From positions 992,001-1,056,000 of the forward strand of contig NZ_BSUK01000001.1 in NCBI RefSeq assembly GCF_030161555.1: 64,000 nucleotides of DNA, written 5' to 3'. This document shows, piece by piece, positions 1-14,370 of the stretch; position 1 is the first letter of the stretch; the number at the start of each line of letters is the position of its first letter. The position numbers and the translations under genes were made by a program. Source of the DNA: Luteimicrobium album (GTDB taxonomy: Bacteria; Actinomycetota; Actinomycetes; Actinomycetales; Cellulomonadaceae). The notes under the pieces are model-generated. The model was not told where the DNA came from, made no database searches, and was given only the letters and a program-made list of their open reading frames with translations.

Positions 1-2302
1 CGGTCGGCGGCGTGGTCGAGCGCCCGGGCGAGGTGGCCGTGGGCCGCCTCGGTGTCGCCCTGCCCCCAGGCCAGCATCGCCGCGGTGAGCTCCCAGTTCA
101 CCGAGAGCTGCGCCCCGCGCTTGGACTCGTCGACCTGCGCGAGCGACCGCCACGCGTCGTCGCGCCGGTCGGCGCGCCGGTAGACCTCCGCCGCCCAGAC
201 GTGGCCGACGGCGAGCCGAGGACCGGCGGGCAGCCGGTCGAGCGCCTCGGCCCCGAACCTCGCGCGGCCCCCGAGCGCCTGGTCGAGCGCCTCGATCACG
301 CCCGCGCAGTCGACGATGGCCGCGGACGACGCCGCGTCGGGCGCGAGCACGATCGCGCGGGCCCGCAGCAGGCCGCCCCGGTCGCCGAGCCCGACGTACG
401 CCGCCATGAGCGCCGCGCCGGCCCGCGACCGCGCGACAGCCGCGCTCGGCGGCAGTGCCGCCAGTCCGTCCTCGAGATAGCCGCACGCGTCCTCGAGGCG
501 GTCGCGCATGTAGCTGACGAAGCCGCGCACGACCTGCGGGCTCGCGAGCAGCTCCGGCGAGTGCCACCCGGCTGCCGCCACGCGGGCCTCGACCTCCTCG
601 GCGAGCGCCCACGCGCCGTGGAGGTCGCCCGTCCCGACGAGCGGCAGGGTGCTCTCCGCCAGGCACGCGAGCTCGAGGGCGGTGAGCCCCTGCTCCGCGG
701 CCAGGGCGGCGCCGCGCCGCAGGTGCGCGAGCGAGCGCGTGTCGTCGTACTCGCTGTACGCCTCGGCGCGTCCCACGAGGTACGCGGCGAGCGCCGCCGC
801 CGACGGCGCGAGGACCGCCTCGTCCTCGAGGATCGACCGCCCCCGGTTCACCGCGTCCGTGAGTCCCGCGCGCGACGCGAGGAACAGCTCGACGAGCGTC
901 GCCGTGGTCCCGACGGCGGTGCGGCGGTCGTCGGGCAGCTCGCCGAGGGTGCGGCGGGCGTGGGCGAGCTGGTCGGACGCGAGGTCGGGCCGGCCCTTGA
1001 CGGCGGAGACCGCCGCGTCGACGACCGTGAGCTCGGGCCCGTCGCGCCACGGAGACGGCACGAGGCCGAGGAGCGCGCGCACGGTCTCGTGCTCGCCCGC
1101 GACCACCCGGTCCGCCCACCGGTCGCTCAGGATCCGCGCCGCGAGCCCGCCGTCCTCGGCGGCGCTCGCGTGCGCGACGGCCGCCGCGAGGTCCGTGGCC
1201 TCGCGCGCGCGGGCGCGAGCGTCCGGTGCGTCGCTCTGTACGCCTCGGGATCGGTGCGGCGCAGGATCGCCTGGCACTGGGCTGCGAACAGGGCGTGCCA
1301 GCGCAGCACGACGTCGTCGTCGCGGTCGCCGACGGTCGTGAGGAACAGCGCGCGGCGCCGGCACTCCTCGAGCATCCGGGGCCCGTCGGGGCCCCCGACG
1401 AGCGTGGCGGTCGCCGCGTCAGCGGTCTCGGAGCACGTGGCCCGGAGCACGAACGACGCGAGCTCGTCGGGCAGGCCGCGCAGCACCTCCTCGACGAGGT
1501 AGTCGGCGAGCGGGACGTCCGGGCGCTCCATCGCGCCGAGCGTCGAGGACGGCGGCGCACCGTGGTCCGCGGCGCCGCGCAGCGCGGTGAGGGTGAGGCG
1601 CAGGGCCACCGGCCACCCGGCGGTGAGCTCGCGGAGGCGGTCCACGTCCGGGTCGGTGAGAGGAGTGGGCTCGGTGGCCGCGAGCGCCGCGACCTCGCTG
1701 CGGTCGAACGCGAGCGCGTCCTGGCGCAGCTCGCCGAGCAGGCCGTCGCCCCGCAGCCGCCGCAGCGGCAGCGCCGGGTCGGACCGGCTCGCGAGGACCA
1801 GGCGGACGTTCGGCGGCACGTCCTCGACGACCGCCCGCACCAGCCCGACGGAGCCCTTCCCGCCGAGCTCGTGGACGTCGTCGAGCACGAGGACGAGATC
1901 GGTGCCGAGCCCGCCCAGCGCGTCGACGAGCGCCGCGACGTGCTCGTCCGCGAGGCTCTGGCCGAGCGCGGGCGTCGCGAGTCCGTCGAGAGCGGACACC
2001 GACCCGACGGCGATGCGGAGCGCCTCGAGAAGCGCGCGGTGCAGGCGCGCGGGGTCGTCGTCGAAGCGGTCGACCGAGAGCCACGCGACCGGCACCGTGC
2101 TGCCCGCCGCCCACGCCGCGAGCGCGGTCGTCTTGCCGGACCCGGCGGGGGCGACGACGAGCGTCAGCGGGTGCGCCGCGACGAGGTCCGCAAGGAGCGC
2201 GTCCACGCGGGGGCGCCCGACGACGGCGGCGGGCACGGAGGGGACGCTGACGCGCGCCCGGGGCTGACGGCCCTCGGGCGCGGCCGCAGCGGGCGTCGCC
2301 AT
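1..2302 (-). CDS. MalT-type LuxR-family ATP-dependent regulator, 3' end off window, frameshifted
   Basis: Large STAND-type transcriptional activator. The N-terminus carries a Walker A P-loop (APAGSGKTT, around residue 55) and a Walker B-like LVLVLDDVHE, followed by winged-helix and TPR-like helical regions as in MalT/LAL regulators. The reading frame breaks near 1201-1225: after the conserved segment RWHALFAAQCQ the protein continues one frame over as an unbroken helical-repeat region to the window start. One missing C restores it. The C-terminal LuxR HTH must lie beyond base 1. The gene at 14353-17020 is a paralogue of the same architecture. The ligand is unknown. The start at 2302 is an ATG with only a short gap to the gene behind it. 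Confidence 0.85.
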
Positions 2303-2371
2303 CCCGCCAGCCTAGGAGCGCGGCGGCGCAGGTGGCGGCCGACACCCCGCTCGGCGGACCCCGGCGGCCGC

Positions 2372-3040
2372 TCAGATCGCGGTGATCCCGTCGCCGATCA
2401 TCTTGAAGCCGATGACCAGCAGCAGGATCGCCATGATCACGGCGTTGTTGTGGATCATCCAGGTCTTGAGCTCGTCGAGGATCTTGGCCGCGCGCGACCC
2501 CATCGCGAGGTACACGACGATCGGCGCGGCCACCCCCAGCGCGGCCACGACGGTGAACACGGCGAGCGCGCCGAGCTGGGTGCCCGTGTCGCCCGGGGCC
2601 GCCGCGGAGATGGCCGCGGCACCCGAGACGACGAGCAGCAGGTTCTTCGGGTTGACCGCCCCCAGGAGGACCGCCAGGCCGAACGCGGCCGGCGGCTTGA
2701 ACGTGTCGATCGCGCTCATCCACTTCGGCGTCGGCGGCTCGGCGTCGCCCTTCGGGCGCCCCGACCACTGGCGGAAAGCCACGAACAGGAGCAGGAGCCC
2801 GAGCACGATCTTGACCCAGGCCACCCAGCCGGGCTTGTCGTCGCTCGGGGTCGCCGCCCCCGCGACCAGCACGACGATCGCGCCGAGCACGTAGATCCCG
2901 ACGAGCCACCCGAGCAGGAACGACAGCGCGTTCGCCTTGGCCCGCGGCGTGACGAGCATGAGCACGACCGCCACGATCGGCAGCGGGCTCACGAGCACGC
3001 CCACCGCCACGGGTAGCGACTGACCGATCGCAGCGCCCAC
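2372..3040 (-). CDS. GAP/SfLAP-family integral membrane protein
   Basis: A 222-residue polytopic membrane protein with about six hydrophobic segments in a LysE-like layout. It has the features of the GAP (Sap, sulfolipid-addressing) family: a proline-rich first helix (LVSPLPIVAVVLML), the loop GAVNPKN near the middle and a long central hydrophilic loop. Members are annotated as small-molecule or lipid exporters, but a substrate cannot be read from sequence. It sits 69 bp downstream of the start of the MalT-type regulator gene, on the same strand, so co-transcription is possible. The ATG start at 3040 is followed directly by a plausible first transmembrane helix. Confidence 0.75.
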   Translation of the reverse strand: MGAAIGQSLPVAVGVLVSPLPIVAVVLMLVTPRAKANALSFLLGWLVGIYVLGAIVVLVAGAATPSDDKPGWVAWVKIVLGLLLLFVAFRQWSGRPKGDAEPPTPKWMSAIDTFKPPAAFGLAVLLGAVNPKNLLLVVSGAAAISAAAPGDTGTQLGALAVFTVVAALGVAAPIVVYLAMGSRAAKILDELKTWMIHNNAVIMAILLLVIGFKMIGDGITAI

Positions 3041-3207
3041 GCGAGCCTCCTCGACGACGCCCGGGCGACCCGGTGCCGGCCCGACGACGTCCTCCCACCG
3101 TGCCCGGCCGCCGTCGGGCGCGCCTCATCCCCTGCGGATGAGCCGCCGCTCCCTCCCGACGGCGCACGCTGGGGCCACTGGATCATCCGACGAGGGGACG
3201 ACCGACC

Positions 3208-4575
3208 ATAAGCACACCCGCCGTACCGTCGCCGGGGCAGAAGGTCACTGCCGACTACGCGAGCGCCGTCGGGCACGCGGCCTACCTATGGGGGTGGGCG
3301 CTCGTGAACCTGCACAACCGCCGCGACCTCATGGCGCAGGTGCCGGCACCCGGCCTCCTCGCGGGGATCGTGCCGGCGGCACCTCCCGGGCGGCTCACGA
3401 TGCTGACCGACTACGTGAGGCCGGAGGAGCGGCTCGTCGCGTGCCCCAACCAGGACGTGGCGTACGGGTTCGGCACCCTCGACGCCGAGCGCGGCCCCTC
3501 CGTGATCCAGGTGCCCGACTTCGGTGACCGGTTCTGGGTGTACCAGGTGGTGGACCAGCGGACGGACTCGTTCGTCGAGCTCGGCGCCATGTACGGGACG
3601 AAGCCCGGGCACTACTTGCTGGCGCCCGCGTCGTGGGACGGGGACGTCCCCGACGGCATCACCGGCGTGTTCCGCTACGACACACGCGTGGGCGTCGCGG
3701 CGCCGCGTGTGTTCCTCGACGACACCGACGAGGACCGCGCCCTCGTGCGGGGCCTGGTCGACCGGATCAGCATGTACCCGCTCGACGAGTTCGACGGCAC
3801 CCTCAAGGTCGTGGACTGGAGCGCCGTGCCGTCCTACGGCGGAGGCTCCGCCACCGGGGACGGCGGCGAGACCCCCGCGGTCGACCCCGACACCTTCTTC
3901 GACGCGCTCCCCGACGTGCTCGACGAGGCGCCACCCCTGCCGGGCGAGCAGGCGCTCTACGACTGGTTCCGCGCCGTGCTCGAGGCGTCCGCGCGCGACG
4001 GGGAGGTCGCCGCGGCGCTGCGGCAGGCCGCCCGCGACGCCGACGCGACCGTCGCCGAGCTGTTCGAGTTCCGGAACTACGGGCTGCCCCTGGACCACCA
4101 CTGGACCACCCAGCGTGCGGGCGCCCAGTTCGGCACGGACTACCTCCTGCGCACGGCCGTCGGGAAGTCGAACATCTTCGTCAACAAGCCCGAGGAGACC
4201 GCGTACTTCTACCTCGACCTGGACGCCGACGGGCAGCGGCTCGACGGTTCACACGCCTACTCGGTCACCTTCGCCGCAGGCGCGCTGCCTCCCGTGCGAG
4301 GCTTCTGGTCGCTGACCGTCTACGACAAGCACCACTTCTTCCACCCCAACGAGCTCGACCGCTACTCGCTCGGGACGAAGAACCAGCACCTGACGCACGG
4401 CGACGACGGTTCCCTCACGCTGACCGTCGGCGGCCCCGCACCGTCCGACCCGGCGGCGCTCGCGAACTGGCTGCCCGCTCCGGCCGAGGAGTTCACGCTC
4501 TACCTGCGCGCCTACTGGCCGGGCGCCGCGATCCTCGACGGCTCCTGGACCCCGCCCGCGGTGAACCGCTCCTGA
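3208..4575 (+). CDS. DUF1254/DUF1214 domain protein, possible ATA start
   Basis: The N-terminal half matches the DUF1254 pattern (segments YLWGWALVNLHNRRDLM and NQDVAYGFGTLDAERGPSV). The C-terminal half matches DUF1214 (GFWSLTVYDKHHFFHPNELD). A conventional GTG start exists at 3304, but the family-conserved N-terminus is already encoded upstream in the same frame. The only sensible initiation point is ATA at 3208, which follows a GAGGGG ribosome-binding site and precedes AGC ACA CCC (protein STPAVPSPGQ). Either an ATA start is used or the true base is G (ATG). Members are secreted or cytosolic proteins of unknown function. The 3' end overlaps the convergent HxlR gene by 64 bp. Confidence 0.8.
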   Translation: MSTPAVPSPGQKVTADYASAVGHAAYLWGWALVNLHNRRDLMAQVPAPGLLAGIVPAAPPGRLTMLTDYVRPEERLVACPNQDVAYGFGTLDAERGPSVIQVPDFGDRFWVYQVVDQRTDSFVELGAMYGTKPGHYLLAPASWDGDVPDGITGVFRYDTRVGVAAPRVFLDDTDEDRALVRGLVDRISMYPLDEFDGTLKVVDWSAVPSYGGGSATGDGGETPAVDPDTFFDALPDVLDEAPPLPGEQALYDWFRAVLEASARDGEVAAALRQAARDADATVAELFEFRNYGLPLDHHWTTQRAGAQFGTDYLLRTAVGKSNIFVNKPEETAYFYLDLDADGQRLDGSHAYSVTFAAGALPPVRGFWSLTVYDKHHFFHPNELDRYSLGTKNQHLTHGDDGSLTLTVGGPAPSDPAALANWLPAPAEEFTLYLRAYWPGAAILDGSWTPPAVNRS

Positions 4576-4973
4576 CCGACCCGGGCACGCGAGCGGGCGA
4601 TCTGCTCCTGGTGCTCCACCGCCCAGTCGGCGACGGCGGAGAGCGGTCCGAGCAGTGACCGGCCTAGGTCGGTCAGGGCGTACTCGACCGACGGCGGAAC
4701 CGTCGGGAAGACCGCGCGGGACGCGAGTCCGTCCTCCTCGAGCCCGCGCAGGGTCCGCGTGAGCATGCGCTGGCTGATGCCGGGGATCCCACGGTGGAGC
4801 TCGTTGAACCGGTAGGGCCGCTGCCCGAGGACCACCACGACGAGCACCGTCCACTTGTCGCCCACCCGGCGCAGCACGTCGGTCACGGGGCACTGCTCGT
4901 ACTCGTCGGCGACGACGGGCAGCACGAGCGGCGTCGCGACCATCGAGGGCACATCGGTGTGCGTACCGGACAT
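4512..4973 (-). CDS. HxlR-family winged-helix transcriptional regulator
   Basis: A 153-residue protein with the HxlR signature: an early cysteine (EQCPVTDVLRRVGDKWT), the recognition region GISQRMLTRTLRGLEEDGL and the wing VEYALTDLGRSL. HxlR proteins are often redox- or electrophile-sensing through that N-terminal Cys. The start is the ATG at 4973 (MSGTHTDVP), behind a GAAGG ribosome-binding site; longer in-frame starts run into the neighbouring gene. It is transcribed divergently from the SDR gene at 5052 with a 78-bp shared promoter region, the usual arrangement for a local regulator of an oxidoreductase. The C-terminus overlaps the end of the DUF1254 gene. Confidence 0.85.
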   Translation of the reverse strand: MSGTHTDVPSMVATPLVLPVVADEYEQCPVTDVLRRVGDKWTVLVVVVLGQRPYRFNELHRGIPGISQRMLTRTLRGLEEDGLASRAVFPTVPPSVEYALTDLGRSLLGPLSAVADWAVEHQEQIARSRARVGQERFTAGGVQEPSRIAAPGQ

Positions 4974-5051
4974 CGAACTGCCTTCTTCCGCGCGAGGCCC
5001 CGGTTCCCGAGGATGGGGTGCGTACTGATCGTAACTACCCCGGGAGGGACC

Positions 5052-5918
5052 ATGGCCGAGCAGGCCGGCAGCCGCACGATCGTCGTGAGCGGTGGCACCG
5101 ACGGGATGGGGCGCGCGTTCGCGCTCGCCCGCGCCGACCGTGGGGACCGCGTCCTGGCCGTCGGCAGCAACCCGGACAAGGGCGCCGCCCTGGTGCGCGA
5201 CGCGGCGCACGCGCCCGGTGTCGTCGAGTTCCTCCGGACCGACCTCACGACCGTGCACGACGCCGACGCGACGGTCCGCGCGGTCCTCGACCGGACGGAG
5301 CGGGTCGACGCCCTCGCGCTGTTCGCCAACCGTCAGGCGCCCCGTCGAGTCGAGACCCCGGAGGGCCTCGAGGCGACGTTCGCCCTGTACTACCTGAGCC
5401 GCGCCGTCCTGGGCGAGGGGCTGCTGCCGGCGCTACGGCGCAGCCCGGCGCCGGTCGTGCTCAACGTCGCCGGGGTCGGCATCACCAAGGGGCACATCCA
5501 CTGGGACGACCTGCAGCTCGTGGCCGACTACAGCATGGTCGCCGCGCAGCTCCAGGCGGCGCGGGCCGACGACCTGCTCGGCGTCCACCACGCCGCCACG
5601 CACCCCGACGTCCCGTACGTCCTCTACCACCCGGGCTTCACGCGTAGCGGCGACCTCAGCGTGCTCCCGGCCGTTCTCCGCACGGCGATCCGCGCCGCGG
5701 CGCGCGCGTCCGCACGACCCGTCGCCGAGTCCATCGCACCCCTGCTGGAGTACGTCGACGCACCGCCGACGGTGCCCCTCACCGCACGCGACCGGGACCG
5801 GACCGTCCCCCTGACCCTGGCGACGCTCGACCCGGGCGACGCGCGGCGGCTCGCCGAGGTGACCGCGCGGATCCTCGAGCGCCTGCGGACCCTCGCGCGC
5901 GCGCCGCGCGAGTCGTAG
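5052..5918 (+). CDS. Short-chain dehydrogenase/reductase family protein
   Basis: A 288-residue Rossmann-fold protein. The nucleotide-binding glycine motif is SGGTDGMGRAFA near residue 13, and an NVAG-type motif (LNVAGVG) follows in the middle. The catalytic YxxxK is not clear: the stretch around IHWDDLQLVADYSMVAAQLQA has Tyr but no Lys four residues later, so this may be an atypical or retinol-dehydrogenase-like SDR. The start is the ATG at 5052 behind GGGAGGG. The divergent HxlR gene probably controls it. It ends 9 bp before the next gene. The substrate is unknown. Confidence 0.75.
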   Translation: MAEQAGSRTIVVSGGTDGMGRAFALARADRGDRVLAVGSNPDKGAALVRDAAHAPGVVEFLRTDLTTVHDADATVRAVLDRTERVDALALFANRQAPRRVETPEGLEATFALYYLSRAVLGEGLLPALRRSPAPVVLNVAGVGITKGHIHWDDLQLVADYSMVAAQLQAARADDLLGVHHAATHPDVPYVLYHPGFTRSGDLSVLPAVLRTAIRAAARASARPVAESIAPLLEYVDAPPTVPLTARDRDRTVPLTLATLDPGDARRLAEVTARILERLRTLARAPRES

Positions 5919-5927
5919 GTTGGCGAG

Positions 5928-6470
5928 GTGACGCAGCCCGCTATCTCGTTGCCGACGTTCGACTTCGCGGCCTTCACCACCGCTCTCAACGCGCGACGCC
6001 GCGAGGTCGGCCGTGACTGGTACCAGCTGGCGGACGACCTGTGGAACCAGTCGTCGGACCTGAACGCCGCCCTCGACGAGGGTCACACCATGTGCGGCGG
6101 GGCGTTGTCCCGGCTGCCGAGCCGGGACGACACCTCGTGCCAGTACGCGATGTTCGCGCTGCGCTGGATGAACCGAGCACCGGAGGACTTCCTGACCGGA
6201 CCGGTCGTCGACGTCGGCGACACCCGCCTGCCGCAGGCCGACTCCGACAGCCGCCTGCGCTGGGACCTCGCCGAGCTGTACGCCGCCGTGGACGAGCAGC
6301 GGCGCGAACACGGCCTGACCTGGACCGCCCTCGCCGGCGCGCTGGGGTGCACGCCCGCCCGGCTGACGAACCTGCGCACGGCCCGTCAGGCCGACCTGGC
6401 GCTGGTCGTGCGACTGGCCCAGTGGGTGCACCGACCCGCGGCGTCGTTCATCCACCCGACGCGGTGGTGA
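5928..6470 (+). CDS. HTH-like (XRE-type) hypothetical protein
   Basis: A 180-residue soluble protein with a GTG start at 5928, 9 bp after the SDR gene. It looks like two degenerate helix-turn-helix repeats: residues about 15-85 (WYQLADDLWNQ...) and about 110-165 (LTWTALAGALGCTPARLTNL), the second resembling a Cro/C1-type HTH. No enzyme motif is visible. It may be a DNA-binding protein, but no family is recognised with certainty. Its stop lies 4 bp before the left 33-bp direct repeat that bounds the toxin-antitoxin segment. Confidence 0.6.
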   Translation: MTQPAISLPTFDFAAFTTALNARRREVGRDWYQLADDLWNQSSDLNAALDEGHTMCGGALSRLPSRDDTSCQYAMFALRWMNRAPEDFLTGPVVDVGDTRLPQADSDSRLRWDLAELYAAVDEQRREHGLTWTALAGALGCTPARLTNLRTARQADLALVVRLAQWVHRPAASFIHPTRW

Positions 6471-6474
6471 GCTG

Positions 6475-6507
6475 TCAGGGGTGGCCCGGCGCCTCGTGAG
6501 CGGCGTG
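6475..6507. repeat. 33-bp direct repeat, left copy (att-like)
   Basis: This 33-bp stretch is identical to 7584-7616, which encodes the last ten codons and the stop of the CDF exporter (AAHEAPGHP end). Identity stops at the edges of the 33 bp. The two copies bracket a 1,076-bp segment that holds only the HEPN/MNT gene pair. The arrangement resembles an integration or duplication at a gene 3' end, although no integrase is present. Confidence 0.85.
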
Positions 6508-6566
6508 AGGCGCGACCACTCGCAAGCCAACCCGACCCGTCATCGCAGATTCGCTATGGTGGATGC

Positions 6567-7021
6567 ATGGACACCTTCGGCGAGTTCCTTCGCGCCCGAC
6601 GATCGGCGGCTGGCCTCACCCAGCAGCGCCTCGCCAAGATGAGCGGAGTCCAGCAGTCGACGATCGCGGCGATCGAACGCGGGCGGCGGCAGCCATCGGA
6701 CGACGCCCGTCGGCGACTGTCCGCCGCCCTCCGCATCCGGCCGCGAGAGATCCTCCTCAACCGGCGTCGCGACGTCGTCGCCACGGCGGCTGACCGCGGA
6801 CTGCGGGACGTCAAGGTCTTCGGGTCGATCGCACGCGGCGAGGACACTCCTACTCGGACGTCGACCTCATGGCGACGTACCCACCCGGATTCGACCTCGT
6901 CGACAAGGCCGAGCTGATCGCCGAGCTCGAGCGACTCCTCACGGTGCACGTCGACCTCGTCTCGCGGACCTCCAGCGGCGCCGCGGCCGCCGAAGCCCGC
7001 AACGAAGCGGTCGCCCTGTGA
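6567..7021 (+). CDS. HTH-MNT nucleotidyltransferase antitoxin (MntA-like), frameshifted
   Basis: The N-terminus (residues 1-60) is a Cro/C1-type HTH (GLTQQRLAKMSGVQQSTI). It is followed by a minimal nucleotidyltransferase domain starting GSIARGED. As sequenced, the frame breaks at about 6848-6850. Restoring one C in ACTCCTAC gives GS-x10-DVD, the MntA catalytic motif, and an open frame to the TGA at 7019-7021. MntA antitoxins AMPylate and neutralise a HEPN toxin (type VII systems). Fusion to an HTH suggests autoregulation. The stop overlaps the GTG start of the HEPN gene (GTGA), which supports translational coupling. Confidence 0.8.
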
Positions 7022-7548
7022 CCGACGGCGCCGACCAGCACCTTCGCGACGAGGCCGACTATGCAACAGACGACGAGGAGCGGACGTACCGGGAGGATCG
7101 CGGCTACCCGAAGAACGCCCGGCCCTTCTCGAGCCAGCAGACGGTGCGCCGGCTGAGCGATCTGCTCGACGTGGCCGACCGCTGCGCGCAGATCGCCCGA
7201 CGCGGCGAGCCGGCCTTCTTCGCCGACGACATCGACGGCGAGCTCCTCCGAGCGGCAGCCGAGCGCTACCTCATCAGCCTCGGGACCGTCGTCGAGAAAC
7301 TTCACAGCGACTACAAGGATGCCGTCCCCGACGTCCCGTGGCGTGCTGTGACAGCCATGCGCAACCTCATCGCGCATCACTACGACAAGGTCGACGACGA
7401 GGTCGTCTGGCAGTCCATCTCGCGTCGTGTCCCCGAGCTGGTCGACGTACTGGGTCTCACCGGAGGCGTCAGCGACGCCGTGCTGCCGCCCCATCTCCGC
7501 GGGCAGGCGCCCCGCTCGTCCGACCCGTTCCCTGACTCGACGCCGTAG
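7018..7548 (+). CDS. HEPN-domain ribonuclease toxin (HepT-like)
   Basis: A 176-residue mostly helical protein with the HepT active-site motif R-x4-H-x-Y (RNLIAHHY) near residue 120, preceded by VPWRAVTAM as in HepT toxins. HEPN toxins are RNases that act on tRNA or mRNA and are silenced by AMPylation of the motif Tyr by MntA. The N-terminal 50 residues (an acidic DDEERTYREDRGYPKNARP region) are longer than in minimal HepT. The GTG start at 7018 overlaps the antitoxin stop. The toxin frame is intact although the antitoxin frame is broken in this sequence. Confidence 0.85.
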   Translation: MTDGADQHLRDEADYATDDEERTYREDRGYPKNARPFSSQQTVRRLSDLLDVADRCAQIARRGEPAFFADDIDGELLRAAAERYLISLGTVVEKLHSDYKDAVPDVPWRAVTAMRNLIAHHYDKVDDEVVWQSISRRVPELVDVLGLTGGVSDAVLPPHLRGQAPRSSDPFPDSTP

Positions 7549-7583
7549 CGCCGCGAACCGATCACCCCCTGGGGTGAGGCCAC

Positions 7584-7616
7584 TCAGGGGTGGCCCGGCG
7601 CCTCGTGAGCGGCGTG
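7584..7616. repeat. 33-bp direct repeat, right copy (3' end of CDF gene)
   Basis: Identical to 6475-6507. This copy is functional coding sequence: it is the last 33 bases, including the stop, of the CDF exporter on the minus strand. It is therefore probably the ancestral site, and the left copy the duplicate. Confidence 0.85.
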
Positions 7617-8516
7617 GCTCGCGGGCTCGAGCTGGAACGTCGAGTGCTCCACGGGCACGTCGAAGCGGGTCGCGACGCAGGCCTGGAGCGCGTCGAGGAT
7701 CTGGGGCGCGTGGCCGTCCCGGAAGCACCCGGAGTCGACGACGACGTGCGCGCTCAGCGTGGGCAGCCCGGTCGCGATGAGGGACGCGTGCAGGTCGTGG
7801 ACGTCGCGCACGTGCTCGACCCGCAGGAGCTGTGCGCGCACCTCGTCGAGGTCGAGTCCCGTCGGCGTCGTCTCGAGGAGCACCGACGCGGTCTCACGGA
7901 GCAGCACGAACGCCCGCGGCAGGATGAGCGCCCCGATGACGAGACCCGCGACGGCGTCGGCCCGGTACCAGCCTGTCATCGCGATCACGATCGCCGCGAC
8001 GATCACACCCACCGACCCGAGCGCGTCGTTGAGCACCTCGAGGAACGCCGCGCGCAGGTTGAGGCTGGCCGACCGGCCGCCGCTCAGCACCGCGAGCGAC
8101 ACCAGGCTACCCACGAGCCCGACGACGCCGAACACCACGAGCGCCGTGGACGGCACCTCCGGCGGGTGGAGCAGGCGCAGGACGCCCTCCACCAGCACGT
8201 ACACCCCGACGGCGAGCAGCACCGCCGACTGCGCGAGGGCCGCCAGCACCTCCAGGCGGCGCAGACCCCAGGTGCGGCGCGCCGTCGGCGGCCGAAGCAC
8301 GAGCCGCGACGCGACGAGCGCGACGAGCAGACCGCCCGCGTCGGTGAGCATGTGCGCGGTGTCGACGAGCAGCGCGAGGCTCCCCGTGACGAGGGCGCCG
8401 ACGGCCTCGGCGACGAGGATCGCCGTCGTGATCCCGAACGCGACCGCGAGCCGGCGCCAGTGCCCGGCGTCGGCGACGTCGCCCGCGCCGTGCGCGTGGT
8501 CGTGGACGTGGCTCAC
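7584..8516 (-). CDS. CDF-family cation efflux transporter (ZitB/CzcD-like)
   Basis: A 310-residue cation diffusion facilitator. The His-rich N-terminus (HVHDHAHG) is followed by six transmembrane segments. Metal-site motifs are visible in TM2 (LLVDTAHMLTDAGG, HxxxD) and TM5 (LEVLNDALGSVG), and a cytoplasmic domain with HDLHASLIATGLPTLSAHVVV follows. Such proteins export Zn2+, Cd2+ or Co2+ by H+ antiport. The GTG start at 8516 overlaps the stop of the upstream ArsR/SmtB-type gene, so the two are translationally coupled and probably metal-regulated. The last 33 bases are duplicated at 6475-6507. Confidence 0.92.
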   Translation of the reverse strand: MSHVHDHAHGAGDVADAGHWRRLAVAFGITTAILVAEAVGALVTGSLALLVDTAHMLTDAGGLLVALVASRLVLRPPTARRTWGLRRLEVLAALAQSAVLLAVGVYVLVEGVLRLLHPPEVPSTALVVFGVVGLVGSLVSLAVLSGGRSASLNLRAAFLEVLNDALGSVGVIVAAIVIAMTGWYRADAVAGLVIGALILPRAFVLLRETASVLLETTPTGLDLDEVRAQLLRVEHVRDVHDLHASLIATGLPTLSAHVVVDSGCFRDGHAPQILDALQACVATRFDVPVEHSTFQLEPASHAAHEAPGHP

Positions 8517-8893
8517 CGGACGGCCCTGGCGGCGGGGACGCTCGCACACCCCAGGACCGCGAAGCCGGTCGCGTCGAGGAGCCGCAGGGTCGCGTCGAGC
8601 AGGCCGCGCACGAGGTCCGGATGGGCGAGGCGGTACTCGACGGCCCGGCCCACCGGGCGTGCCTCGACCAGCCCGCACTCGCGCAGGCACGCGACGTGGG
8701 CGCTCACGGTGCTCTGGGCGAGGCCGAGGTGGTCGACGAGGTCGCGGACGCGGTGCGGGCCCTCGAAGAGGTGCTGCAGGATCGTCAGCCGCGCGGGTTC
8801 GCCCGCGGCGCGCAGGAGCGCGCTCACCGCCTCGGGGGCGCCGAGCCCCGCATCGCTCGAGCCTGGATCGTCCACAACCGATGTCATCGCCAT
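8513..8893 (-). CDS. ArsR/SmtB-family metalloregulator
   Basis: A 126-residue winged-helix repressor. The recognition helix region is VRDLVDHLGLAQSTVSAHVACLRECGLV and the wing is VEYRLAHPDLV. Cysteines occur in the recognition helix (VACLREC) and in a C-terminal GCASV, resembling the CmtR-like placement of metal ligands. It is the first gene of a two-gene operon with the CDF exporter (GTGA overlap), so it is expected to repress that operon until Zn, Cd or a similar metal binds. Confidence 0.88.
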   Translation of the reverse strand: MAMTSVVDDPGSSDAGLGAPEAVSALLRAAGEPARLTILQHLFEGPHRVRDLVDHLGLAQSTVSAHVACLRECGLVEARPVGRAVEYRLAHPDLVRGLLDATLRLLDATGFAVLGCASVPAARAVR

Positions 8894-8942
8894 GGACCGA
8901 TGTTATCGACCGTCGCTCGCCGCCGGGACACGCACACCCCCG

Positions 8943-9005
8943 CCGTGTGGGCATGCGTTTGGCTGTTTCGCGGGCGCGGAAACAGCCAAACGCATGCCCA
9001 CACGG
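8943..9005. repeat. 63-bp perfect hairpin in a divergent intergenic region
   Basis: Two 27-base arms (8943-8969 and 8979-9005) are exact reverse complements around a 9-base loop. The arms include GCATGCGTTTGGCTGTTTC. It lies between two divergent genes (ArsR/SmtB regulator and universal stress protein), so a terminator role is not expected. It is far longer than a typical operator. Confidence 0.85.
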
Positions 9006-9060
9006 TTCGGGAGGGGCCGCATCGCTAGGCTGACCGACAGACGACGGAGAGGTGGTCCGC

Positions 9061-9612
9061 GTGGGTAGCACGCCCGTTCCCCAGCCCGGCCTGGACCGCA
9101 TGGTCCCGTTCCCGGGCCACCCGCTCGTCGTCGGCGTCGTCCCCGGCCAGGACCCGCTCGTCGTGCGGACGGCCGCCTCGCTCGCGGCCGCGGTCGGCGC
9201 CCGGATCGCCTTCGCGTACGTCGACACCTCGCGGTACGTCGTGGAGGAGCACGCCGACGGCGCCGTGCGACACGCGCCGATCGACCCCGAAGGCATCGAC
9301 GACCGGTGGGAGGACACCGAGGACTCCCTGCGCGCGGGCCTCACCGACCTCCTGCGCGATGACGACCTCCACTGGGACTTCCGCTACCTCGCGGGCCTCC
9401 CCGACCGAGCCCTGACCCACCTGGCGCGGGCCGTGGACGCGTGCGCGATCGTCGTCGGGACGCGCGTCGCGGGGACCGGGCACCACATGCGCGAGCTCCT
9501 CGAGGTCTCCGTCGCCGCGCACCTGTCCCACCACCAGCACCGGCCGGTCCTCACCGTGCCGCTCGCCGTCGTGGACTGGAAGGAGATCCGCGCCCCCTGG
9601 GCGACGCGCTGA
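9061..9612 (+). CDS. Universal stress protein (UspA family)
   Basis: A single-domain Usp fold of about 183 residues. The first strand is PLVVGVVPGQDP. The ATP-binding signature G-x2-G-x9-G(S/T) appears in the form VVGTRVAGTGHHMRELLEVSVAAHL near the C-terminus, here given in part and somewhat degenerate. The GTG at 9061 is preferred over the GTG at 9052 because the GGAGAGG ribosome-binding site has a workable spacing only to 9061. Usp proteins respond to starvation, hypoxia or redox stress. It is divergent from the metalloregulator operon. Confidence 0.85.
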   Translation: MGSTPVPQPGLDRMVPFPGHPLVVGVVPGQDPLVVRTAASLAAAVGARIAFAYVDTSRYVVEEHADGAVRHAPIDPEGIDDRWEDTEDSLRAGLTDLLRDDDLHWDFRYLAGLPDRALTHLARAVDACAIVVGTRVAGTGHHMRELLEVSVAAHLSHHQHRPVLTVPLAVVDWKEIRAPWATR

Positions 9613-9616
9613 GCCG

Positions 9617-10048
9617 TCAGTCCGCGCGCTCGCCCGGCGTGACGCCGAGCGCGGAGAGGAGCCCGACGACCCGTCGGCGGATCTCGTCGCGGATCGGGCG
9701 CACGGCGGGGGCGTCGAGACCGGCCGGGTCGTCGAGCTCCCAGTCCTCGTAGCGCTTGCCGGGGAAGATCGGGCACGCGTCCCCGCAGCCCATCGTGATC
9801 ACGACGTCGGACGCCTGCACGGCGTCGACCGTCAGAACCTTGGGCTGCTCGGCGGTGAGGTCGACGCCGACCTCGGCCATGACCTCGACCGCCGTCGGGT
9901 TGATCCGGTCCGCGGGCATCGAGCCGGCGGAGCGGACTTCGACGGCGTCGCCCGCCAGCGCGCGCAGGAAGCCGGCAGCCATCTGCGAGCGCCCGGCGTT
10001 GTGCACGCAGACGAAGAGGACGGTGGGCACGGAGGATGGGGTGCTCAT
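9617..10048 (-). CDS. arsC: Arsenate reductase (LMW-phosphatase type)
   Basis: A 143-residue protein of the low-molecular-weight PTPase superfamily. The P-loop Cx5R is FVCVHNAGRSQMAAGF at about residue 14, and a second thiol motif MGCGDACPIFPGKRYEDWELDDPAG follows, typical of thioredoxin- or mycothiol-linked ArsC. It reduces arsenate to arsenite in the cytoplasm. The start is ATG 10048 behind AGGAG. It is transcribed 19 bp downstream of the ArsO-like flavoprotein gene on the same strand and belongs to the operon facing the divergent arsR. Confidence 0.93.
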   Translation of the reverse strand: MSTPSSVPTVLFVCVHNAGRSQMAAGFLRALAGDAVEVRSAGSMPADRINPTAVEVMAEVGVDLTAEQPKVLTVDAVQASDVVITMGCGDACPIFPGKRYEDWELDDPAGLDAPAVRPIRDEIRRRVVGLLSALGVTPGERAD

Positions 10049-10067
10049 GGGGGTTTCTCCTCGGAGG

Positions 10068-11416
10068 TCAGACGGCGGGGGCGCCGAGACCGATCGTGAC
10101 GGGCTGCGGCCCGGCGGGCGTGCCACAGCACGAGCCGCCCTCGACCCCGAGTGCCAGGTCGCTCGAGCAGACCCCCGTCGCAGGGAGGTTCAGCTCGACG
10201 GCGTCCGCCGCGGCCCGGTCGCCCGCGAGCGCCGCCGCGATCGAGCGCACCTGCTCGTACCCGGTCGCGAGCAAGAAGGTGGGCGCCCGGCCGTAGGACT
10301 TCATCCCGGCGAGGTAGAACCCGTCGTCGGGGTGGCGCAGGACCCGTTCGCCGTGCGGGGGACGGTCCCGCACGAGTGCAGGTTCGGGTCGATCAGCGGC
10401 GCGAGCGCGCTGGGGGCCTCCACGACGGGGTCGAGGTCGAGGCGTACCTCGCGCAGCATGTCGAGGTCGGGGCGGAACCCGGTCACGTCGACGATCGCCT
10501 GCACCTCGAGGTCGAGGACGTCGTCGCGCGAGGTCCCCAGCACCCGCACGGTGTCCTCGCCCGGGACGAGCCGCTCGATCGCCGTCCTCACCAGGAGCGT
10601 CAGCCGGCGGGCGTCGACCGCCGCCTTGAGGCGGGTGCCGAGCAGGCCGCGCGCCGGGAGCTCGTCGTCGGTCCCGCCGCCGAACAGCCGCCGGGCGGAG
10701 CCGCCGCGGATCGCCCACGTGATGCGCGTGCCCGGCGCGGTCTCGGCGAGCTCGACGAGGCTCAGCAGGGTGTTCGCGGCGGAGTGTCCCGTCCCGACGA
10801 CGAGCGTGCGGCGGCCCGCGAACCTCGCCCGGTCACGCCCCAGCACGTCGGGCAGGGGGCCGGTCACGAACTCCGCGGACTCCGCCTCCCCGGCTGCGGG
10901 GAGGCCGGAGACCCCGAGCGGGTTGGGCGACCCGAAGGTGCCCGACGCGTCGATGACGGCGCGGGCGTGGACATCGGCGACCCGGCCCGAGCCGTCGACC
11001 GTGCGCACGAGGTACCCACGGCGCTCGCGCCCGAGGGACCGGGTCTTGTCGGCACCCTCGCGGGCGACCGCGACCACGCGGGTCCCCGGCCGGACGCGCG
11101 GCGCGAGTGCGGGGGTCGCCGCCAGCGGCTCGAGGTACTGCTCGACCAAGTCATGACCGGTCGGCGTGCCGTCGGGATCCGGTGCGGTCCAGCCCGTCGG
11201 CGCGAGCAGCCGGCGCGCCGCGGCGTCGACGTCGTAGCGCCACGGCGAGAAGAGTCGCACGTGGCCCCACGAGGCCACGGCCGCTCCGACCTTCTCCCCG
11301 GCCTCGAGCACCAGCGCGTCCAGGCCGCGCTCGAGCAGGTGCGCCGCCGCCGCCAGGCCCACCGGCCCGGCCCCGATCACCACGACCGGAAGCTCGTCTC
11401 TCGCCACGCCCGCCAC
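10068..11416 (-). CDS. ArsO-like flavin-dependent monooxygenase, frameshifted
   Basis: FAD/NAD(P)-binding oxidoreductase. The N-terminal dinucleotide motif is VVIGAGPVGLAAAAHLLERGL. A second NADPH-type motif, TLVVGTGHSAANTLLSL, lies in the middle, and DVTGFRPDLDML follows, as in flavin monooxygenases. The frame breaks in the G-run at 10357-10361; one missing base joins it to the C-terminus GFYLAGMKSYGRAPTFLLATGY and a Cys-containing tail (SCCGTPAG). Its position between arsC and a divergent arsR matches ArsO of actinobacterial ars islands, whose exact reaction is not settled. The start is GTG 11416 or GTG 11407. Confidence 0.8.
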
Positions 11417-11423
11417 CCGCTCC

Positions 11424-11478
11424 CATCGATGCACTTCGATACGACTCGTCCGAACAACGTATCGACACTTCTCGATGG
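11424..11478. promoter_or_regulatory. Divergent arsR/arsO operator region with inverted sites
   Basis: Two related 20-bp sites face each other: CATCGATGCACTTCGATACG at 11424-11443, and its imperfect reverse complement at 11458-11478. They lie between the divergent flavoprotein and arsR starts. Paired ATCGA-type half sites are what an ArsR repressor would bind. The assignment is inferred from position and symmetry. Confidence 0.6.
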
Positions 11479-11494
11479 CTGGCAAGATGGAGCC

Positions 11495-11866
11495 ATGAGC
11501 CTCGACCTGACCGACGTCAGCACCCCGGACTGCTGCGCGACCGTCGTCCGCGAGTCGCTCGACCCCGCCGCGGCAGAACAGCACGCCCGGGTCTTCAAGG
11601 CGCTCGGCGACCCGACCCGCCTCCGGCTCCTCTCCATCGTCGCCGCGCACGACGGCGCCGAGGCCTGCGTCTGCGACCTCACCGAGCCCGTCGGGCTCGC
11701 CCAGGCGACCGTAAGCCACCACCTCAAGGTGCTCGTCGACGCCGGGCTGCTGACCCGGTCCCAGCGCGGGAAGTGGGGCTACTACGCGCTCGTCCCCGGC
11801 GCGCTCGACCAGGTCGCACGGTCGCTCGCCGACGTCGCGCCGGAGAGCCTCATCCCCCACGGATGA
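11495..11866 (+). CDS. arsR: Arsenical resistance repressor ArsR (CgArsR-like)
   Basis: A 123-residue ArsR-family repressor. It has an N-terminal vicinal Cys pair (DCCA, residues 13-14) and a CVCDLT segment (residues 58-60). This matches the As(III) site of Corynebacterium-type ArsR, which uses an N-terminal CC pair plus one downstream Cys, rather than the E. coli type alone. The recognition helix is VGLAQATVSHHLKVLVDAGLL. It is divergent from the ArsO-arsC operon across a region with inverted operator-like sites. Confidence 0.92.
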   Translation: MSLDLTDVSTPDCCATVVRESLDPAAAEQHARVFKALGDPTRLRLLSIVAAHDGAEACVCDLTEPVGLAQATVSHHLKVLVDAGLLTRSQRGKWGYYALVPGALDQVARSLADVAPESLIPHG

Positions 11867-11956
11867 GGCGCGAGCCCTCCCGCCACGCCACCGTGAAGGG
11901 GTAGGCACGACGACCGCCGCCCCGCGACGCGGCCGGGCGCACTTCGAGGAGGAACC

Positions 11957-12352
11957 ATGGCACAGAGGGTCACGGGCTGGGTCGGCTGGATCTGGTTCGC
12001 CGGCATCGTCATGTTCATCGCCGGCGTCTGGAACTTCTTCTACGGTCTCGCGGCCGTGCTGGGCCCCGACAAGGGCTACGTCGCGACGAGCGGCAAGCTG
12101 CTCGTCCTCAACCTCAACGGCTGGGGCTGGGCGCACCTGATCTTCGGGATCGTTCTGGCGATCGTGGGCCTGGTGGTCCTGAGCGGTGCGGCGTGGGCGC
12201 GGATCCTGGCGATCCTCCTCGTCGCGCTCAACCTCATCACGCAGTTCATCTGGCTGCCCGTGCAGCCTTGGTGGTCGCTGCTCGTCATCGTCCTGGACTT
12301 CTTCGTGATCTGGGCGCTGATCGTGCACGGCGAAGAGGCCGAGCGGGTCTGA
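11957..12352 (+). CDS. DUF7144-family four-helix membrane protein
   Basis: A 131-residue protein with four hydrophobic helices and the family-like pattern GWVGWIWFAGIVMFIAG at the start, AWARILAILLVALNLI in the third helix and a C-terminal ALIVHGEE. The ATG at 11957 follows GAGGAGGAACC. Its function is unknown; homologues are common small membrane proteins of actinobacteria. It starts a run of closely spaced membrane-protein genes that ends with the K+ channel at 13579-14370. Confidence 0.75.
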   Translation: MAQRVTGWVGWIWFAGIVMFIAGVWNFFYGLAAVLGPDKGYVATSGKLLVLNLNGWGWAHLIFGIVLAIVGLVVLSGAAWARILAILLVALNLITQFIWLPVQPWWSLLVIVLDFFVIWALIVHGEEAERV

Positions 12353-12356
12353 CCCG

Positions 12357-13097
12357 GTGGACGGAGCGCCGAGCACCGCGGGCGCCGCCGGCGGGGACCG
12401 CGACGACGCGGCTCTCGCCGGCGCTCCCGCGCGTCGCCGTCTCTTCCAGGGCTCCGGCGCCGCCCTCGCGGGCTTCCTCTTCGCGATCCTCTTCACGTGG
12501 GGTTTCGTCCTGCTCGACCACGGCCCGGGCCGCACCGCCGACGACGCCGCCCTGGTCGCGTACTACCAGGGCTCGGGCGGGACGTCGCTGATCGTCGCGG
12601 GCTTCTACCTGGTGCCGTTCGCCGGCCTCGCCTTCCTGTGGTTCATGGCGGCCTCCCGGCACCGGATCACCCAGCTCGCGCTGCGCGAGGACGCCCTGCT
12701 GGCGACCGTACAGCTCGCGTCGGGGATCGTGTTCGTCGCGATGTTCTTCGTGGCAGCCGCGGCGGCCGTCTCGGGGGTCGCGGCCATCCGCGTGGGCGAT
12801 GTCGACTCGGCCGACCTGGCGAGCGCGACCCGGACCATGCTCACGTACGGCGACGCGCTCCTCATGGTGTTCGGGTTCCGCATGGCGGGCGTCTTCATCC
12901 TCACGTCCACGACCCGCGCGCTCCGGGCGCAGCTCTTCCCCCGCTGGTTCGCCGTCCTCTCCTACGCGGGCGTCGCCGTGCTCCTGTTCTCGCTCAGCTA
13001 CGTCCGCTGGATCGTCCTCATCATCCCGGTGTGGGTCTTCGCCGCCACGGCGATCATCCTGTTCCGGCGGATCGTCGGGCAGAGGGCCGAGGCATGA
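12357..13097 (+). CDS. Hypothetical polytopic membrane protein
   Basis: A 246-residue protein with about six to seven transmembrane segments (for example FQGSGAALAGFLFAILFTWG and YVRWIVLIIPVWVFAATAII). A short hydrophilic N-terminus (about 30 residues) precedes the first helix. The GTG start at 12357 is 4 bp after the DUF7144 gene, and the stop overlaps the next gene's ATG (ATGA). No catalytic or transport motif is recognised. It is probably part of the same operon as the channel gene. Confidence 0.65.
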   Translation: MDGAPSTAGAAGGDRDDAALAGAPARRRLFQGSGAALAGFLFAILFTWGFVLLDHGPGRTADDAALVAYYQGSGGTSLIVAGFYLVPFAGLAFLWFMAASRHRITQLALREDALLATVQLASGIVFVAMFFVAAAAAVSGVAAIRVGDVDSADLASATRTMLTYGDALLMVFGFRMAGVFILTSTTRALRAQLFPRWFAVLSYAGVAVLLFSLSYVRWIVLIIPVWVFAATAIILFRRIVGQRAEA

Positions 13098-13579
13098 GCA
13101 TCGGCTCGTGGATCGACTTCGACTCGATGTCCGGCTGGACGGTCGTCTGGCTCGTCGTCACGGCCGTCGCCACGTGGCCCGCCGCACGCTACGGCCGCCT
13201 CGTCCACCTCGTCCACCTCCCCAACGGTCGTGTCCTGTTCGAGCCGCTGGTCAACCACGCGTCGTCGAGCGGCAACCGGTCCGAGATCGAGGTCCGCACC
13301 ACGGCGCTCGACCACGTGGACGGCCTGCGCGACACGCTCCTCGGCGCCGCCCGGCACACGTCCGGGGTCCGGTCCGACCCCCGCCCGATCTCGTCTGGGT
13401 CGCGAGCAGCCCCAAGGTCTCGTCGGGCGCCTCCGCGTCTGGCACGCGCCACCCGACGGGACGTCCGTCGTGTCCGCCGTCGTGCTCGCCACGTCCGAGG
13501 CGCTCCGCGACGCCGGGCTCACCGCGAGCCTGACCTCTCCCCCGCCGCCACCACCGTTCACACCCCTCCGGAGCTGTGA
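13094..13579 (+). CDS. Hypothetical membrane-anchored protein, triply frameshifted
   Basis: The ATG at 13094 overlaps the upstream stop. One N-terminal transmembrane helix (WTVVWLVVTAVATWPAARYG) is followed by a soluble region. The frame moves back by one base at the C-run 13378-13382, again at about 13425-13427, and again at the C-run 13539-13543. Restoring one base at each point gives a continuous protein that ends HTPPEL with TGA at 13577-13579, overlapping the ATG of the channel gene (TGATG). That clean junction supports three missing bases rather than decay. The family is not recognised. Confidence 0.6.
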   Translation: MSIGSWIDFDSMSGWTVVWLVVTAVATWPAARYGRLVHLVHLPNGRVLFEPLVNHASSSGNRSEIEVRTTALDHVDGLRDTLLGAARHTSGVRSDPRPISSGSRAAPRSRRAPPRLARATRRDVRRVRRRARHVRGAPRRRAHREPDLSPAATTVHTPPEL

Positions 13580-14370
13580 TGCCCGACGACGTCACACCGG
13601 CCGAGCGTCCCGCGCGTCGGGGTCCGTTCGCCGCGCTCGTCCGGACGGTCCGCCGGACGGACGACTTCGTCCTCGTGCTCGTGCTGCTCGTCGCGAGCTA
13701 CGTGCTGTACGCGGCGAGCGGGCACGGGGTCGTCCGCACGATCGTGACCGTCCTGTACGCGGCCACGTTCGTGATCGCGTTCCGGGCCACCGACCCGACG
13801 CGACGCCAGCGACGGGCGCTGGTCGTCACGTTCGCCGCCGCCGTCGTCGTCGTGGGGCTCTCCTACGCGTTCCTCCCGGAGGCGGACGCCGACGGCATCG
13901 CCAACATCTTCGTCACCGCGATGCTCCTGGTCACGCTCGTCTCGACGCTCGCACGCGTGCTCCGCCACCCCCGCGTCACGCTCCAGACCATCGCCGGGGC
14001 GCTCAGCGCCTACCTGCTGGTCGGCATGACGTTCAGCACGGTCTTCGCCGTGGTCTCGTGGCTGGGGCCGCACCCGTTCTTCGCGGGCGGCGGCAGCGAG
14101 GACCTGCGGGCGTTCCAGTACTTCTCGTTCAGCACGCTCACGACCACCGGGTACGGCGACCTCGCCCCGCTCAACCCGGCCGGCCGGGGCCTCGCGAACA
14201 TGGAGTCGCTCACGGGCCAGATCTTCCTCGCGACCCTGGTCGCGCGGCTCGTCGCGTCCTACCGGATGCTCCCGCTCCGGGGCCGCCGACCCGCCCCCGC
14301 CAGCGCGTCCACCCCGGACGACGCCGCCCCGTCCTCCGCGGGCGGCGACGGCTCAGGCGCCGGTCAGTAG
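13579..14370 (+). CDS. Potassium channel family protein
   Basis: A 263-residue protein with several N-terminal transmembrane helices and a C-terminal pore module. The selectivity filter is TTTGYGDLAP, preceded by the pore helix AFQYFSFSTLTTTG and followed by a final helix GQIFLATLVARLVAS. No RCK/TrkA nucleotide-binding domain follows; the tail is a short Pro/Ala-rich region. It belongs to the two-pore-helix ion channel family (Ion_trans_2). A GTG at 13576 is possible, but the ATG at 13579 fits the TGATG overlap. The end overlaps the convergent regulator gene by 18 bp. Confidence 0.85.
   Translation: MPDDVTPAERPARRGPFAALVRTVRRTDDFVLVLVLLVASYVLYAASGHGVVRTIVTVLYAATFVIAFRATDPTRRQRRALVVTFAAAVVVVGLSYAFLPEADADGIANIFVTAMLLVTLVSTLARVLRHPRVTLQTIAGALSAYLLVGMTFSTVFAVVSWLGPHPFFAGGGSEDLRAFQYFSFSTLTTTGYGDLAPLNPAGRGLANMESLTGQIFLATLVARLVASYRMLPLRGRRPAPASASTPDDAAPSSAGGDGSGAGQ

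What the first reader, a model, noticed from the sequence alone, without database searches (positions are those of the whole stretch)
6475..7616. Type VII HEPN/MNT toxin-antitoxin segment flanked by a 33-bp duplication of a gene 3' end
Seen: 6475-6507 and 7584-7616 are identical for 33 bp. The right copy is the end and stop codon of the CDF gene. The 1,076 bp between them hold only the HTH-MNT and HEPN genes. This looks like insertion at a gene 3' end with duplication, the pattern used by integrative elements, but no integrase is present. It may be a minimal mobile or cassette-like unit moved in trans.
Basis: partly seen in the sequence, partly recalled or inferred. Interest (0 to 1): 0.75.

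Follow-up and report, generated by a model that had tools for sequence, protein, structure and literature searches.

The report
Toxin-antitoxin pair inserted at gene's end
In this actinobacterial genome a two-gene toxin-antitoxin-like pair sits between two identical 33-bp copies of the end of a neighbouring metal-transporter gene, and similar pairs in other genera, one with an unoccupied single-copy site in a sister species, suggest that such bare pairs likely insert into gene ends and duplicate them without carrying any recombination enzyme of their own.

Summary
The repeat is real: 6475-6507 and 7584-7616 match 33/33, and the right copy is the 3' end and stop codon of a CDF gene. Only an HTH-MNT gene (frame-broken here) and a HEPN/HepT-like gene lie between. 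The nearest relative, Luteimicrobium xylanilyticum, has the pair at the same place without the left copy, but has also lost the end of the upstream gene there, so the window's own ancestral state stays open. The pattern recurs. Among 118 MNT/HEPN pairs sampled from the same class, 5 are bracketed by strong direct repeats, against 0 of 537 and 1 of 780 control intervals. In four (window, G009, G202, G548) both copies hug the pair and the HEPN-side copy belongs to the 3' end of a different convergent gene. For G202 a congener (G015) has the same two flanking genes tail to tail with one copy and no pair: an empty site. Best reading: insertion of a bare type VII-like TA operon with long, variable target duplication, as reported for restriction-modification units. 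A trans-acting integrase is not excluded. Against it: the left copy is unchanged although the pair predates the split from L. xylanilyticum (about 4 changes expected). New variant of a known kind.

The parts
5928..6470 (+). Upstream HTH-type gene (180 aa, 'HTH180'); its stop codon lies 4 bp before the left repeat
   Evidence: weak HTH, below cut-off; found in 8 of 221 family genomes including this one, the 6 outside the genus aligning to residue 178 or 180
6475..6507 (.). Left 33-bp repeat: orphan copy of the CDF gene 3' end, stop codon first (TCA on + strand)
6508..7583 (+). Segment between the repeats (1,076 bp), the inferred inserted unit; GC 0.694 against 0.740 and 0.747 for 1 kb on each side
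   Evidence: homologous to L195 from 6540 to 7445 at 79% nt
6540..6566 (+). Conserved leader of HTH-MNT (CATCGCAGATT..GCTAT), kept in G002 and L195; probable promoter
   Evidence: conservation; promoter role inferred
6567..6851 (+). HTH-MNT antitoxin-like gene, N-terminal piece (Xre-type HTH plus start of the nucleotidyltransferase)
   Evidence: HTH_31 49.6 bits; frame break relative to G002
6851..7021 (+). HTH-MNT, C-terminal piece in another frame (YSDVDL motif)
   Evidence: no Pfam match of a 50-aa part on its own
7018..7548 (+). HEPN/HepT-like toxin gene, 176 aa, RX4HXY motif as RNLIAHHY
   Evidence: PF01934 51.5 bits, cut-off 23.5; motif
7584..7616 (.). Right 33-bp repeat: native 3' end and stop codon of the CDF gene
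7584..8513 (-). CDF cation efflux transporter, the inferred target gene (start codon approximate)
8513..8893 (-). ArsR-type regulator upstream of CDF
   Evidence: HTH_5 56.4 bits

Best explanation
The segment is a bare two-gene HTH-MNT/HEPN operon that likely inserted into the 3' end of the CDF gene and duplicated the last 33 bp of that gene, without carrying a recombinase. Before insertion the HTH180 and CDF genes would have met tail to tail with 4 bp between their stop codons; the left copy still has that junction (shown: sequence). The break would have fallen inside the CDF coding end, and the target stretch was copied on both sides, so that the transporter kept an intact end on the HEPN side and an orphan end was left upstream of HTH-MNT (inferred). 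The joining step is probably host break repair or illegitimate recombination at a staggered break, of the kind thought of for restriction-modification units that insert with long and variable target duplication (inferred). Once in place, toxicity of the HepT-like toxin after loss of the pair would select against precise deletion between the repeats, which would keep both the pair and its repeats (predicted from type VII systems; not tested). For G202 the insertion with duplication is shown by comparison with an empty site; for the window it is inferred by analogy.
For: Left copy directly follows HTH180 stop + GCTG; joining the flanks gives a sensible tail-to-tail gene pair. Recurrence: 5 of 118 distinct MNT/HEPN pairs have flanking direct repeats of >=50 bits and >=85% identity within 600 bp, against 0 of 537 displaced intervals of the same loci and 1 of 780 random intervals of related CDF loci (Fisher p 2e-4; 1.2e-3 without the window). 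In 4 of the 5 both copies lie within 160 bp of the pair and the HEPN-side copy is at the 3' end of a convergent gene: window CDF 33 bp 100%; G009 SnoaL-like gene 129 bp 95%; G202 membrane-protein-like gene 48 bp 85%; G548 amidohydrolase-like gene 356 bp 95% (the last three gene names are my reading of the sequences). The segments between these repeats are 841-1,076 bp. Empty site: in G015, same genus as G202, the LLM-gene side (88% nt over 1,431 positions) lies tail to tail with the single-copy end of the target gene; the left G202 copy aligns to 1496-1541 there and the right side from 1510 onward at 72%. The G548 copies are equally far from the sister gene in G533 (91.0% over 356 and 90.8% over 447 positions), which suggests a lineage-specific duplication. 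In G533 another HTH-MNT/HEPN pair sits directly behind the same gene, and G939 is its empty site. The window's module recurs at 79% nt in another family at an unrelated place (L195): it moves as a unit.
Against: G002 has the pair at the same locus without the left copy; an older left copy must then have been deleted there. A pair older than the G000/G002 split should have a left copy with about 4 changes (4-fold sites differ at 123 of 585, summed by hand); none is seen, P about 0.017 if neutral (0.001 to 0.14 by gene). 113 of 118 pairs show no such repeats. The threshold was set after the first cases were seen. The fifth case (L198) lies 290-305 bp from the pair. No empty site was found for the window, G009 or G548. 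The G533 fragment is only about 77% alike and not at the far edge of its insert.
Confidence: 0.52

Rival explanations
1. Remnant or trans-mobilised cargo of a site-specific integrative element: a tyrosine integrase used the CDF 3' end as attachment site, and only the toxin-antitoxin pair is left between attL and attR.
For: All four tight cases sit at gene 3' ends; in the window the repeat begins exactly at the stop codon and in G548 close to it; the end of the same amidohydrolase-like gene is occupied in two species, G548 and G533, by different pairs, 2 of 19 loci of that gene. A 23-bp repeat beside the G647 pair reads to me like a tRNA 3' end, but ARAGORN and Rfam call no tRNA there.
Against: No integrase among 14 genes scanned, the pair included; the four targets are unrelated genes and their repeats share no core beyond shuffled level; repeats vary from 33 to 356 bp; in 221 family genomes the 33-mer is found only at CDF ends plus this one orphan copy; 3 of 80 related CDF loci gave an extra match to their own end, none a distant direct repeat.
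Confidence: 0.22
2. The left copy is a later, unrelated ectopic copy (template switching or short gene conversion) of the CDF end, dropped beside a toxin-antitoxin pair that was already there.
For: G002 has the pair and no left copy; the left copy is unmutated although the pair predates the split.
Against: Does not explain why the same layout recurs round MNT/HEPN pairs at other genes, nor the G202/G015 empty site. G002 lost the conserved HTH180 end at the same point, so its lack of the copy can be secondary.
Confidence: 0.2
3. Assembly artefact in an error-rich single-contig genome.
For: 81.6% completeness in one contig and several frame-broken genes in the window.
Against: Indel errors do not copy 33 bp to a place 1.1 kb away; both junctions carry unique sequence, and the surrounding blocks are colinear with G002.
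Confidence: 0.03

Closest known systems
Insertion of restriction-modification units with long and variable target duplication (Nobusato et al. 2000; Furuta et al. 2010, both seen only as cited in PMC3874152 and PMC3031569, passages read)
   Same: Small, likely addictive unit; flanking direct repeats of tens to hundreds of bp made of host target sequence; found by comparing related genomes; no recombinase seen in the unit here
   Different: Cargo here is an HTH-MNT/HEPN pair, hosts are of the window's bacterial class, and the four tight cases all sit at the 3' end of a convergent gene
Type VII toxin-antitoxin system HepT/MntA (PMC7641770, passages read)
   Same: HepT-like PF01934 protein with RX4HXY; nucleotidyltransferase with GSX10DXD in G002
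   Different: Antitoxin carries an N-terminal Xre-type HTH; the proteins scanned score below the NCBIfam HepT and MntA cut-offs; the window's antitoxin frame is broken
Integrative elements that target gene 3' ends with a tyrosine integrase (recalled)
   Same: Gene 3' end duplicated on both sides of the insert
   Different: No integrase seen, no shared attachment core, about 1 kb in size
Toxin-antitoxin pairs in Tn3-family transposons (PMC7157771, search listing only) and the ccdO157 islet (PMC2654758, passages read)
   Same: Small toxin-antitoxin pairs acquired as units
   Different: No terminal inverted repeats here; gene-end duplication not described in what was read

Membership tests
Type VII toxin-antitoxin (HepT/MntA) | HEPN toxin of PF01934 with RX4HXY | tested here: met
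   51.5 bits against cut-off 23.5; RNLIAHHY; 98 of 118 pairs have the motif
Type VII toxin-antitoxin (HepT/MntA) | Adjacent MNT antitoxin of PF01909 with GSX10DXD | tested here: inconclusive
   Not in one frame in the window; met in G002 (PF01909 43.4 bits; motif) and motif in 115 of 118 pairs
Type VII toxin-antitoxin (HepT/MntA) | NCBIfam equivalog cut-offs for HepT and MntA | tested here: not met
   26.1 of 60 bits (window HEPN) and 33.9 of 60 (G002 MNT); so 'type VII-like', not filed as HepT/MntA proper
Type VII toxin-antitoxin (HepT/MntA) | Toxin growth inhibition and AMPylation by the antitoxin | not testable with these tools
   needs expression and mass spectrometry
Insertion with long target duplication | Long, length-variable direct repeats of host sequence round the unit | tested here: met
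   33, 48, 129 and 356 bp in four tight cases
Insertion with long target duplication | Relative with unoccupied site and a single copy | tested here: inconclusive
   Met for G202/G015; for the window no such genome among the 3 held of the genus
Integrase-type integrative element | Integrase gene in or beside the element | tested here: not met
   None in 15 sequences from 14 genes of 2.4-14.4 kb; the rest of the genome was not scanned
Integrase-type integrative element | Common attachment core across insertions | tested here: not met
   Longest exact match between any two of the four repeats is 6-8 bp, shuffles reach 9-12; 33-mer in 3 of 221 genomes
DDE-type transposon | Terminal inverted repeats and short fixed target duplication | tested here: not met
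   Repeats 33-356 bp; longest exact inverted match of the 40-bp ends of the four segments 5-6 bp, shuffles reach 7-9

The most novel reading that the evidence does not exclude
HTH-MNT/HEPN operons are themselves minimal mobile units of about 0.85-1.1 kb: they insert at the 3' ends of ordinary genes with a 33-356-bp target duplication that leaves the gene intact, need no recombinase of their own, and persist because toxicity blocks the precise reversal between the repeats.
Probability: 0.35. Interest if true: 0.76.

Novelty: new variant of a known kind. Interest (0 to 1): 0.6.

Why it matters
How small chromosomal toxin-antitoxin pairs move when no transposon, phage or integron is seen round them is an old open question. 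The loci found here (window, G009, G202, G548, and G202/G015 as an occupied/empty pair) give concrete junctions at which the joining mechanism can be read, and they extend the long-target-duplication mode, reported for restriction-modification units, to another kind of likely addictive gene pair.

Tried and rejected
Empty site for the window: not found. Only 3 genomes of the genus are held; G001 lacks the pair and its matches to window 1-14000 are scattered over several contigs (40 of 1309 candidates scored); G002 is occupied. The 80 CDF loci from named genomes include G002 itself (L071); none of the other 79 gave a match to the pair or to HTH180 within the DNA held.

Empty site for G009: SnoaL-like and lipoprotein-like genes are both present in G033 and G175 but not adjacent. 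For G548: the gene beside its left copy was not found beside the target gene in any of the other 18 loci.

CDF 3' end as a common attachment site: not supported. Of 80 CDF loci, 3 gave an extra match of more than 45 bits to their own CDF end: one tandem (L094) and two inverted just downstream (L125, L129).

Plasmid or phage carriers: no DNA match in 72,556 plasmid records. By protein (L195 HEPN): 12 plasmid and 2 phage records, all below 37% identity, none covering 80% of the query.

tRNA attachment sites: 5 tRNA calls lie in or within 1.5 kb of the 118 pairs, none with a duplicated 3' end above 21 bits. The G647 repeat (23 bp) reads like a tRNA 3' end but no tRNA is called there; not counted. 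The L194 repeat (28 bp) looks palindromic; not counted. L197, L232 and L289 pass the looser 40-bit limit but fall below 50 bits or 85% identity; not counted.

Looser threshold: >40 bits in 8 of 118 pairs, 3 of 390 random intervals (p 6e-4), 0 of 73 CDF-bounded intervals. An earlier run had 1 of 312 random intervals above 50 bits.

Sampling limits: the 118 distinct pairs came from 137 loci given to (recounted); duplicates by HEPN sequence, loci without a clear pair and those with flanks under 80 bp were dropped. One search used the same 118. Not every place listed was fetched. In one search the start of the L275 pair was reset by hand to the start of its MNT frame.

PDB: no convincing sequence relative of the HEPN protein (2 hits, E 0.54 and 0.8). 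Structure prediction, protein-database search and RNA models were not used.

Literature: 'long target duplication' (19 of 19 papers listed) and the wider term sets (25 of 73 listed, 25 of 74, 25 of 73, 20 of 197, 15 of 180, 10 of 17) gave no listed title or abstract start that describes MNT/HEPN pairs inserted this way. Only these listings and the passages named were seen; no paper was read whole. Furuta 2010 is not held.

Full report
OBSERVATION. The 33-bp direct repeat is exact and at the stated coordinates. It has no other copy in the 4.18-Mb genome within 3 mismatches, and occurs in 3 of 221 family genomes. In G096, as here, it is the end of a CDF gene, encoding ...HAAHEAPGHP and the stop. 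So the right copy is the native gene end and the left copy is an orphan. The left copy begins 4 bp after the stop codon of the upstream gene (HTH180).

THE PAIR. The HEPN gene (7018-7548) matches PF01934 at 51.5 bits and carries RX4HXY as RNLIAHHY. The gene before it starts with an Xre-type HTH and continues into an MNT domain, but in this assembly the two halves lie in different frames. G000 is 81.6% complete in one contig and other genes in the window are broken in the same way, for example 14365-17020 in three frames, so a sequencing indel is the likely cause. PADLOC's candidate family PDC-S09 matches the antitoxin of G002 (69.3 bits). The HEPN of the window and the MNT of G002 score below the NCBIfam HepT and MntA cut-offs, hence 'type VII-like'.

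CLOSE RELATIVE. G002 has HTH180, MNT, HEPN, CDF and ArsR in the same order, but its HTH180 stops aligning at residue 173 while the 6 homologues outside the genus align to 178 or 180. About 80-90 bp are missing, and HTH180 runs in frame into HTH-MNT as one 330-aa frame. G002 therefore carries a derived deletion just where the left copy would be, and cannot say whether its ancestor had that copy. Dating speaks against an old left copy: 123 of 585 fourfold sites differ between the two genomes (summed by hand), about 4 changes would be expected in 33 neutral bases on one lineage, none is seen, P about 0.017. Constraint or gene conversion could explain this, but it counts against the simple insertion story.

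RECURRENCE. A first scan of 30 HEPN loci turned up a second bracketed pair, in G009. There a 129-bp repeat (95%) spans the last 49 bp of a SnoaL-like gene, stop included, and 80 bp beyond it. In the enlarged sample of 118 distinct MNT/HEPN pairs (from and the fetches; defined), 5 have flanking direct repeats of at least 50 bits and 85% identity, against 0 of 537 displaced intervals in the same loci and 1 of 780 random intervals in related CDF loci (p 2e-4, and 1.2e-3 without the window). The threshold was chosen after the first cases. In four of the five both copies lie within 160 bp of the pair, and the HEPN-side copy is at the 3' end of a convergent gene: CDF (window), SnoaL-like (G009), a membrane-protein-like gene (G202), an amidohydrolase-like gene (G548) (the last three names are my reading). 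The segments between the repeats are 841-1,076 bp; the repeats share no core and the segments have no inverted ends beyond shuffled level. The fifth case (L198) is looser, and 113 of 118 show nothing.

EMPTY SITES. In G015, a congener of G202, the LLM gene (its side 88% identical in nucleotides) and the target gene meet tail to tail with a single copy; in G202 the pair stands between two copies of that stretch. In G533 a different HTH-MNT/HEPN pair sits directly behind the orthologue of the G548 target gene; in G939 that gene is followed after about 20 bp by the next gene, so that 2,537 bp of G533 stand where G939 has 19 unaligned bases. A decayed fragment like the gene end lies inside that insert, not at its far edge, and the pair runs the other way relative to the gene, so this case is only suggestive. 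G548's two copies are equally distant from the G533 gene.

MOBILITY. The window's pair is 79% identical in nucleotides from 6540 to 7445 to a pair in another family (L195), in unrelated surroundings. G009 and G172 carry pairs 77-86% alike in protein, and none of three G009 flanking genes was found in the 3.3-kb G172 locus. The segment's GC (0.694) is about the lowest tenth of the window. No close copy was found on plasmids or phages.

MECHANISM. The layout fits insertion with long, variable target duplication, which passages in PMC3874152 and PMC3031569 describe for restriction-modification units. The duplication keeps the target gene whole, which may be why survivors sit at gene ends. The joining by host break repair and the retention by toxicity are my inference. 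An integrase acting in trans remains possible: gene-3'-end targeting is its hallmark (recalled), but no enzyme was seen nearby and no shared core was found.

VERDICT. It is a new variant of a known kind: shown by comparison for G202, inferred for the window.

Noticed in passing
window 8943-9005: A 27-bp perfect inverted repeat with a 9-bp spacer (CCGTGTGGGCATGCGTTTGGCTGTTTC), upstream of the ArsR gene; a 20-bp part of it has no other copy in the window.
   Followed up: partly
L071 about 7492-8484 (G002, minus strand): In L. xylanilyticum the deletion fuses HTH180 in frame to HTH-MNT into one 330-aa frame; part of HTH180 there seems to read in another frame.
   Followed up: partly
window 3146-5861 and 8894-11843: Two stretches without a match at the same place in G002, so that the HTH180-to-ArsR block is an island of synteny between two indels.
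   Followed up: no
window 14365-17020 and 47706-49467: Genes that break into three frames relative to G002; together with 81.6% completeness this suggests many indel errors in the assembly.
   Followed up: partly
L094 3365-3528: A CDF gene followed after about 30 bp by a 133-position, 76% copy of its own 3' end.
   Followed up: no
L336 (G533) 4482-7018: 2,537-bp insert behind an amidohydrolase-like gene holding HTH-MNT, HEPN, a decayed gene-end fragment and a 443-aa gene not yet classified; G939 has the empty site.
   Followed up: partly
G240 (contigs C12, C40, C63, C67, C74): Six HTH-MNT-like matches in one 2.5-Mb genome.
   Followed up: no
L237 (G647): A 23-bp direct repeat that reads like a tRNA 3' end on both sides of an MNT/HEPN pair, without a callable tRNA.
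   Followed up: partly
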